64,000 bases of DNA from Meloidogyne chitwoodi (Eukaryota > Nematoda > Chromadorea > Rhabditida > Meloidogynidae), in the NCBI GenBank assembly GCA_015183035.1, contig JACZZP010000010.1:2232001-2296000 (forward strand), in the 5' to 3' direction. The notes below the pieces were generated by a model, which had not been told where the DNA came from, did no database searches, and saw only the letters and a list, made by a program, of their open reading frames with translations. This document shows positions 22,379 through 23,945 of the stretch, in pieces. Numbering within the stretch: position 1 is the stretch's first letter; each line of letters begins with the position of its first letter. The position numbers were made by a program, and so were the translations under genes.

Positions 22379-23945
22379 TTATGATTTTGGGAACAATTCT
22401 CTAATTAAAAAGCCATACACTGAATTTGTAATACCCCAAGTTAGAACTGATCTTGAAAAATTTAATTGAGCTCCACGATAGAGGGCACGTATTGATCCTT
22501 CTCTTTCTTCCATTATCGTTTTTAAAACACGCCATGAAGAAATAAATTCTGCACAAACACTTGACTGGAAAAAAAGTTTAAAAGCTTGAGATTAGAAGGA
22601 ATGTTTGAAAAATGGAAGGAACGCTTAAAAGCCATTTATTTTAAATGAATTTACCCAATAAATTCACAAATTATAAATAAACCTGCATTCGATTCTTCAC
22701 AACATTAACTGGATAAAACAAAGTTGAAATACATCCACCCAAAAAGCCTCCACAAATAAAGTCTGCTAATGAATGAAATAATCCTCTGTTAGTGTCAATT
22801 TGTTGTGGAGACAATTCCAATAAAGATGAACGTAAAGGTTCGCGTAGAGAAAAGAATAAAATATTGCTACATCTAAAAATATATTAATGAACAAAAAATT
22901 CAAAAAATAAAATACCCGTTTCTCATAACCATTAGTGAATATCCTCTATAAAACCTAAAAAAAAAATTCTCAAATTTAAAAATTTTTAATTAAAAAAATA
23001 ACAAAACTCTCTAAGTGGATAATCCTTATAAATTAAACAAAATGTATGCCACGTATTTTTGAATTTATCCAAATGTTTTGTCGTTTGTAGAAGACTTTGT
23101 ACTCTTTCTAGTGGACATAAAAAAGCTTCAGTTGCACCGGCTTAAATAAAGGAAAATTTATTTAAACTCTAGTTAAATAAAAATAAACCTAAAAAAGAAC
23201 AAAATGCACGACAAATATTTTGATCCTTTTCAGAGCAACCAAATAATCGTTGATATTTTTCATTTGTTCCAAACCTTAAAATATTTAATTAAAATTACTA
23301 AATTTTTATTAACAAAACTGTTTAAAAATGAACTTTTTAAAGTGTTGCCTTTATTACTATTGAAAAGATCTAAAGCCTAATAAAGTTTAGAAGAAGAATG
23401 TAACTTTCAGTTTTTACTCTGTAAAATAAAATCTCGAAATTTTCCCGAATGAAAATAATTTTTTGTGTAAATGTAAATTAGAGGATGATACCATTTAGAA
23501 AACAAAAGATTAGAAGATTTAACGATTTTGGATCAAAATTTGCTAAAAAAGATAAAGTAAAATAAAAACGCATGCTAGGCGGCACCAGAATCTTGCATCA
23601 AAAAATCCAAATTAAACAAAATTAAACTAACATAATTGAACGAATTGCTGTCCTTTGCATCAGTGGAGGCAGAAGACCGCGAAACATAAAAAATCAATAA
23701 ATTGTTAGTCATCAATAAAAGGAAATTACAAATTTCTAGTCCCTTCTCGCTTTAACTAAAAAGATCCAAAAATAAATTTTTAAAAATTTAAAAGAAAAAA
23801 CTTGTTTAACAGCCTCAACAAGGGTAATATTGTGCAATTGTTGTCTAAAAATTATTTTTGTTTTGGGAAATAGAACAAAAGTTTCAATACATCCAGCACT
23901 TGCTCCACAAATAAATTCTCTGTAGTGTTCAATTATAGATGTCAT
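22379..23945 (-). CDS. SLC25A51-like mitochondrial NAD carrier
   Basis: Eight exons: 23945-23802, 23755-23730, 23685-23632, 23274-23189, 23140-23008, 22954-22916, 22872-22683, 22564-22379; 858 nt, 285 aa. Mitochondrial carrier of the SLC25A51/52 (MCART) group, which moves NAD into the matrix. Diagnostic stretches: FVLFPKTKIIFRQQLH, EGTRNLFRGLLPPLMQR, ATEAFLCPLERVQSLLQ, FYRGYSLMVMRNGCSNILFF, FICGGFLGGCISTLFYPVNV and LYRGAQLNFSRS, in human-like order and spacing. Three carrier repeats give six membrane spans. Intron 2 must end in TTTTTTAT rather than AG: no AG exists between the conserved EGTRNL and FRGLLPP parts, and homologous length fixes the junction. The start ATG sits directly before the first helix, as in the human protein. 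Confidence 0.88.

What the first reader, a model, noticed from the sequence alone, without database searches (positions are those of the whole stretch)
23686..23729. Second unrelated gene with the same AG-less acceptor context
Intron 2 of the SLC25A51-like carrier lacks AG between EGTRNL and FRGLLPP. Homologous length in the human protein places the junction at TTTTTTAT|GTTTCGC. The 13-nt context ATTTTTTATGTTT is shared with the lactamase intron, though the genes are unrelated. This suggests a tolerated alternative 3' splice signal in this lineage, helped by a strong U-run. C. elegans mutants have been reported to splice without an AG (Aroian et al. 1993, from memory), which makes it plausible.
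Basis: partly seen in the sequence, partly recalled or inferred. Interest (0 to 1): 0.8.

Follow-up and report, generated by a model that had tools for sequence, protein, structure and literature searches.

The report
Nematode introns lacking the AG end
In this root-knot-nematode-like genome a small share of introns in conserved genes do not end in the near-universal letters AG, keeping one of the two plus a G at the start of the next exon, and related species seem to share some of them, which suggests that the worms' splicing machinery has become more tolerant.

Summary
Intron 2 of the SLC25A51-like gene (minus strand, 23729-23686) is GTAATT...TTTTTTAT|G, contains no AG, and its join is fixed by homologues. 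It is one of a class: with a self-trained gene finder and homologue alignments I back eight independent junctions without AG, in six unrelated genes. Each keeps exactly one of A(-2)/G(-1) and has G at +1; roughly 1.3% of introns modelled. Public gene models of other Meloidogyne break at the same places: the lactamase-like exon is absent from three species' models, and IleRS and SLC25A51 models start at the ATG that AT|G would create. So some sites look conserved in the genus, and assembly error or pseudogenes are unlikely. The shared 13-mer is coincidence (241 genomic copies; 0 of 20 sampled called as acceptors), and an unusually strong U-run is not shown. Likeliest mechanism, inferred: permissive U2AF/spliceosome reading of AG|G. 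This genome has two diverged U2AF35 genes, one with the -3-reading serine changed to leucine. Frequent non-canonical sites were already reported in M. graminicola, and U2AF duplication with non-AG introns in a tunicate, so this is a new variant of a known kind. No RNA was seen.

The parts
22379..23945 (-). SLC25A51-like mitochondrial carrier gene (Pfam Mito_carr), 8 exons by hand reading; one close copy found in this genome
   Evidence: reading
23686..23729 (-). Intron 2: GTAATT...TTTTTTAT|G, 44 nt, no AG (AT|G)
   Evidence: join RNL^FRGLLPP ungapped in 11 of 13 homologues
23632..23685 (-). Exon 3 (54 nt, GTTTCGC...): first exon after the AG-less acceptor
22950..23002 (-). Intron 5 of the same gene: cutting at its AG (22956-22955) breaks the frame; homologues want EF^YRG, i.e. 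GTTATT...AGGTTTT|ATAGAGG. Boundary unresolved; not counted among the eight
   Evidence: reading; alignment
15281..15329 (-). Lactamase-like gene copy A, intron GTATAT...TTTTTTAT|G before the 48-nt exon starting LSVAISKDEQLKYAA (AT|G)
38531..38579 (-). Lactamase-like gene copy B, same intron (AT|G)
16815..16917 (-). Lactamase-like gene copy A, intron GTTGGT...TTTTTTTCG|G before RLVSMGHFW (CG|G)
   Evidence: hand reading. The gene finder modelled this copy differently
40072..40178 (-). Lactamase-like gene copy B, same intron (CG|G)
14136..17393 (-). Lactamase-like gene copy A (homologues carry PF17660 + PF00144), with two AG-less introns; limits from the gene finder
38097..40371 (-). Lactamase-like gene copy B, paralogue, shorter at its 3' end; limits from the gene finder

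Best explanation
Intron 2 of the SLC25A51-like gene is an ordinary short U2-type intron with a GT donor whose 3' end is AT|G instead of AG|G. It belongs to a minority class in this genome (about 1% of introns) in which one of the two AG bases is lost, the other is kept, and exon base +1 is G. Shown from sequence: the joins are fixed by homology, some are shared by paralogues, and gene models of other Meloidogyne break at some of the same points. Inferred: the spliceosome still removes these introns exactly. U2AF (U2AF65 on the U-rich tract, U2AF35 zinc fingers reading U-3 A-2 G-1 | G+1) tolerates one mismatch when the +1 G contact is present, and exon ligation accepts the same site. Speculative: the second, diverged U2AF35 gene (serine 34 to leucine) is part of why the lineage tolerates this.
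For: Eight independent junctions in six genes: SLC25A51 AT|G; lactamase-like AT|G and CG|G, each in both paralogues; mitochondrial IleRS CG|G at GPVY^WSPH and AT|G at WTTTP^WTIP; receptor guanylate cyclase TG|G; Ku80 GG|G (weak PDB match E = 0.012; Pfam Ku E = 3e-11); CCDC93 GG|G. Forbidding non-AG ends lowers the gene score by 8-16 at the IleRS, Ku80, CCDC93 and cyclase genes. All 8 have +1 G (155 of 488 canonical introns do; p = 1e-4; optimistic, see against) and all keep one of A/G. Other Meloidogyne: 3 of 3 lactamase-like models lack exactly the exon behind the AT|G site, while 10 of 10 other nematodes aligned have it (13 of 38 hits aligned). 5 of 5 IleRS models other than M. graminicola's start MTIP at the AT|G join, and the M. 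incognita SLC25A51 model starts MFRGLL. U2AF1 structures: the zinc fingers hold -3U to +1G, and affinity is highest with +1 G (passages of PMC7505975). Two U2AF35 genes. Duplicated, diverged U2AF1 goes with non-AG ends in Fritillaria (abstract and passages of PMC13326754).
Against: No RNA from this species was seen. The same U2AF1 paper says that mutating AG sharply lowers binding, -1G more than -2A, so binding alone does not predict tolerance. The gene finder's scoring slightly favours +1 G and rare dinucleotides, so the +1 G p-value is optimistic; in class-by-class runs the two +1 G classes near AG gave 6 and 7 strong calls against 0-6 in the other ten, so the rule rests on the homology-fixed joins. 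The cyclase and CCDC93 joins are placed by less strictly conserved residues (CCDC93 has a one-residue gap close by), and other offsets repair the same frames. Nine CCT/Hsp60 genes gave 0 confirmed AG-less introns among 79 modelled. Several gene-finder calls proved canonical on reading (ACADM-like 28358, PARL-like, Hsp60, CCT5). A longer U-run is not shown. SLC25A51 intron 5 does not fit the +1 G rule if read as homology suggests. One U2AF35 copy keeps Ser34, and nothing links either copy to these introns.
Confidence: 0.75

Rival explanations
1. The same mRNA arises if both cuts lie one base downstream: the 5' cut after the G of GT and the 3' cut after NNG (G|T...NNG|). Then the last intron base is always G, only the A of AG is variable, and the odd step is at the 5' site.
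For: Every backed junction has G at intron +1 and at exon +1, so sequence and mRNA cannot tell the two apart. M. graminicola annotation lists TT-AG as its commonest named non-canonical class (0.51%, passages of PMC7593179), which could be the same ambiguity.
Against: It needs a shifted 5' cut, for which I can cite no precedent; the donors look ordinary (GTAATT, GTATAT, GTGAGT).
Confidence: 0.1
2. Assembly or base-calling error at the acceptors (true sequence AG|G).
For: Each site is a single substitution from AG|G; no reads were available.
Against: Both lactamase-like paralogues carry both odd acceptors. Models from other species break at some of the same points. All eight backed sites share +1 G.
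Confidence: 0.04
3. Decaying genes, or exons that are really skipped (the exons behind the SLC25A51 and lactamase AT|G sites are 54 and 48 nt, so skipping keeps frame).
For: My first model, with non-AG ends at 1% prior, skipped the 48-nt exon, as do public models in three Meloidogyne. SLC25A51 intron 5 also looks odd.
Against: The peptides in question are present in 11 of 13 SLC25A51 homologues aligned and in 10 of 10 non-Meloidogyne lactamase-like homologues aligned. SLC25A51 identity to M. hapla (88.5%) is near that of M. hapla to M. incognita (90.3%) over 226 shared columns. The IleRS, Ku80 and CCDC93 joins lie inside aligned conserved domains.
Confidence: 0.06

Closest known systems
Non-canonical splice sites of Meloidogyne graminicola (PMC7593179, passages read)
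   Same: Same genus by gene-model kinship; 5.34% non-canonical sites, several classes, and a stated hypothesis of a flexible spliceosome citing Aroian 1993
   Different: The passages seen do not say which 3' ends lack AG, nor describe the one-of-two-plus-G(+1) pattern, conservation at orthologous introns, or U2AF copies
AG-less splicing of C. elegans acceptor mutants (Aroian 1993; Zhang & Blumenthal 1996; seen only as cited in PMC10946897)
   Same: Nematode introns spliced without AG
   Different: Those are mutations in one laboratory species; here the sites are natural, in several genes, and appear shared between species
Fritillaria borealis non-canonical introns with duplicated U2AF (PMC13326754, abstract and passages)
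   Same: Non-AG 3' ends together with a second, diverged U2AF1 changed in zinc finger 1
   Different: There about 95% of introns escape GT/AG; here about 1%, donors stay GT, and any role of the second U2AF35 is untested
GC-AG introns of Globodera and Heterodera (PMC4901422, PMC11817004, passages)
   Same: Raised non-canonical splicing in plant-parasitic nematodes, partly conserved between two Globodera species
   Different: Those change the 5' site; here the 3' site changes

Membership tests
U2-type spliceosomal intron (non-AG variant) | GT donor with normal context | tested here: met
   All 8 backed introns start GT
U2-type spliceosomal intron (non-AG variant) | Removal restores the conserved reading frame exactly | tested here: met
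   Homologue alignments across the joins, protein only; six exact, two approximate
U2-type spliceosomal intron (non-AG variant) | RNA-supported junction | not testable with these tools
   No transcript data for this species available
U2-type GT-AG intron (canonical) | AG at the 3' end | tested here: not met
   AT, CG, TG or GG at the 8 joins
U12-type intron | ATATCCTT/GTATCCTT donor (motif recalled) | tested here: not met
   Donors GTAATTTC, GTATATTT, GTGAGTTT, GTTGGTTT etc. by reading
Fritillaria-type U2AF-driven non-canonical splicing | Second, diverged U2AF1 gene | tested here: met
   U2AF35 genes on C5 and C13, 145 of 231 aligned residues identical; C13 has Ser34 to Leu
Fritillaria-type U2AF-driven non-canonical splicing | Second, diverged U2AF2 gene | tested here: inconclusive
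   Two U2AF65 loci, 92% alike in DNA with nearly the same protein; recent duplicate or unmerged haplotype
Fritillaria-type U2AF-driven non-canonical splicing | Diverged U2AF binds non-AG ends | not testable with these tools
   Needs binding data

The most novel reading that the evidence does not exclude
Root-knot nematodes have independently evolved what a tunicate did: a duplicated U2AF35 whose -3-reading residue changed (Ser34 to Leu) lets the spliceosome read AG|G as 'any two of three'. AG-less introns have thereby become a stable, inherited 1% of the gene set that AG-only annotation has been skipping or truncating in published Meloidogyne gene models.
Probability: 0.22. Interest if true: 0.85.

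Novelty: new variant of a known kind. Interest (0 to 1): 0.6.

Why it matters
AG at intron ends is among the most fixed rules of gene structure. A genus where about one intron in a hundred lacks it, with a simple pattern and a candidate factor (a second U2AF35), would make 3' splice site tolerance testable in natural genes. Practically, the published Meloidogyne models seen here for two genes are truncated, and for a third lack an exon, at just such sites, so proteomes of these crop pests may contain more wrong proteins of the same kind.

Tried and rejected
Shared 13-mer as a signal: 241 genomic copies against 570 for the reverse-read control; 0 of 20 sampled sites called as acceptors by the gene finder (20 of 241 read, the first ones listed outside the window, of which three are copies of one repeat). 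Its AG version occurs 126 times against 135 for its control, so neither word is enriched. Strong U-run as the compensating feature: not significant. Gene-finder non-AG calls without homology: one search gave 22 non-AG among 527 introns. Seven of those calls are homology-backed. Two are wrong (ACADM-like 28358, really ...CCAG|GTGGCC by my reading; PARL-like C1 171369, really TTTCAG|TTCCTAGC). The other 13 were not settled (first-exon artefacts, weak genes, or no homologue found or tried, e.g. 49256, 49359, 121653). CCT/Hsp60 genes as an independent set: 0 confirmed among 79 modelled introns (not each checked against a homologue; the model set contains a few errors); the odd calls in Hsp60 and CCT5 were canonical, or no intron at all, on reading. 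Class-by-class prior runs could not by themselves fix the exact base or prove the +1 G rule, because neighbouring offsets repair the same frame. In canonical introns U content does not differ with +1 G (p = 0.43); dependence of +1 G on base -3 was tabulated, not tested. The SLC25A51 gene was not recovered by the gene finder; its structure is hand-read.

Full report
What was checked. The finding lies in a gene on the minus strand, 23945-22379, encoding a SLC25A51-like mitochondrial carrier. The window is part of a 47.48 Mb, 30-contig genome held unnamed. Its closest proteins are from Meloidogyne. Size and contig number match M. chitwoodi as I recall it; no tool named it.

The junction. Intron 2 is 23729-23686 (44 nt): GTAATTTCC...GATTTTTTAT, then exon GTTTCGC. 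It has no AG, and keeping it puts a stop after one codon. The join ...REGTRNL^FRGLLPP... is ungapped in 11 of 13 homologues aligned; the older M. hapla model (P0004) lacks the region and the M. incognita one (P0002) starts there. Intron 3 of the same gene is ordinary GT...TTTTAAG. Intron 5 is odd as well: cutting at its AG shifts the frame, homologues want EF^YRG, and the boundary stays unresolved.

Not alone. I trained a small gene finder on the window plus 200 kb of another contig. It found 72-73 genes and about 520 introns, nearly all GT-AG with median length 48 nt. Allowing other ends at low prior gave 22 non-AG calls among 527 introns. I kept only those that homologues support. These are: mitochondrial IleRS, two introns, CG|G at GPVY^WSPH and AT|G at WTTTP^WTIP; Ku80, GG|G at DLVQ^GYRYG; a receptor guanylate cyclase, TG|G; CCDC93, GG|G; and the lactamase-like genes, AT|G before LSVAIS and CG|G before RLVSM, each in both paralogues. 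With SLC25A51 that makes eight independent junctions; six are placed exactly by conserved residues, the cyclase and CCDC93 ones approximately. Of the 22 calls, seven are backed, two were shown wrong and 13 were left open. A separate set of nine CCT/Hsp60 genes gave 0 confirmed among 79 modelled introns. A rough rate is 8 of about 606 introns, 1.3% (0.7-2.6%, computed on 607). It is rough because the SLC25A51 site was not found by the gene finder and misses were not counted.

Pattern. All eight have G at exon +1 (155 of 488 canonical introns do; p = 1e-4), and all keep exactly one of A(-2) and G(-1). The p-value is optimistic: the gene finder's scoring slightly favours +1 G and rare dinucleotides, and in class-by-class runs the two +1 G classes next to AG gave 6 and 7 strong calls against 0-6 in the other ten. 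With AG|G as the likely parent in each case, the sites read as 'two of three'. Because the intron also starts with G, the mRNA would be the same if both cuts lay one base on; protein data cannot separate these readings. The U-run is not significantly longer than in canonical introns.

Other species. For the lactamase-like gene, 3 of 3 Meloidogyne models (M. hapla, M. enterolobii, M. javanica) lack exactly the 16 residues behind the AT|G site, as my own low-prior model also did. All 10 of the other nematodes aligned have them (13 of 38 hits aligned). The five IleRS models from M. enterolobii, M. floridensis and M. javanica begin MTIPxNN, as an ATG made by AT|G would give. The M. graminicola model is complete at both IleRS joins. 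The M. incognita SLC25A51 model begins MFRGLLPP, again as the ATG of AT|G would give. These are inferences from protein models; I had no DNA of those species. The join before RLVSM is intact in the other species' models, so not every site need be shared.

Mechanism. U2AF1 bound to RNA holds -3U, -2A, -1G and +1G, and affinity is highest with G at +1 whatever the preceding intron sequence (passages of PMC7505975). That would explain why a lost AG base is tolerated with +1 G; this step is inference. The same passages say that mutating AG sharply lowers U2AF1 binding, so something more permissive than the human protein, or tolerance at a later step, is needed. The genome has two U2AF35 genes. One has 257 residues as modelled and keeps Ser34. 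The other has 231 residues as modelled, Leu at that place, and changes in zinc finger 2. Ser34 reads base -3, and S34F/Y mutants discriminate little at -3 except against G. In 433 short GT-AG introns here base -3 is A 198, T 196, C 34, G 5; AT-richness alone gives something near this. In Fritillaria borealis, duplication of U2AF coincides with non-AG introns, and the diverged U2AF1 prefers other ends (PMC13326754, abstract and passages). Two U2AF65 loci here are 92% alike and may be alleles. The link between U2AF35 copies and AG-less introns is a lead, not a result.

Known or new. M. graminicola was reported with 5.34% non-canonical sites and a guess at a flexible spliceosome (passages of PMC7593179). 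C. elegans mutants splice without AG (seen cited). In the searches I found no description of the AG-less pattern, its conservation or the U2AF35 pair in Meloidogyne; I saw listings and some passages, and that library holds only openly licensed papers. I therefore file it as a new variant of a known kind.

Noticed in passing
14136-17393 and 38097-40371 (-): The two lactamase-like genes are close paralogues; copy B ends early with a different C-terminus as modelled. Only these two loci matched in the genome.
   Followed up: partly
24119-24654: Two long inverted arms just upstream of the SLC25A51-like gene (exact match of 136 nt, starts 24119 and 24518; longer by eye), looking like a small hairpin transposon.
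   Followed up: partly
5270-5430: Short tandem repeat (AATTAAAACATTTTCCGGAAAGTTTACAAAA, about four units by eye) inside an intron of a gene that reads like a neprilysin (name recalled, not searched).
   Followed up: no
G000:C5:798253-799511 and C13:137527-138412: Two diverged U2AF35 genes, one with Ser34 to Leu.
   Followed up: partly
L065, L066 (C26 and C28): Two U2AF65 loci, 92% alike including introns: recent duplicate or unmerged haplotype.
   Followed up: partly
22956-22950 (-): Five extra bases between the AG of intron 5 and the conserved exon start of SLC25A51; splicing at the AG would break the frame.
   Followed up: partly
L042 (C5:397900-400400): The CCT6-like gene carries an unusually long intron (about 400 nt by reading).
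   Followed up: no
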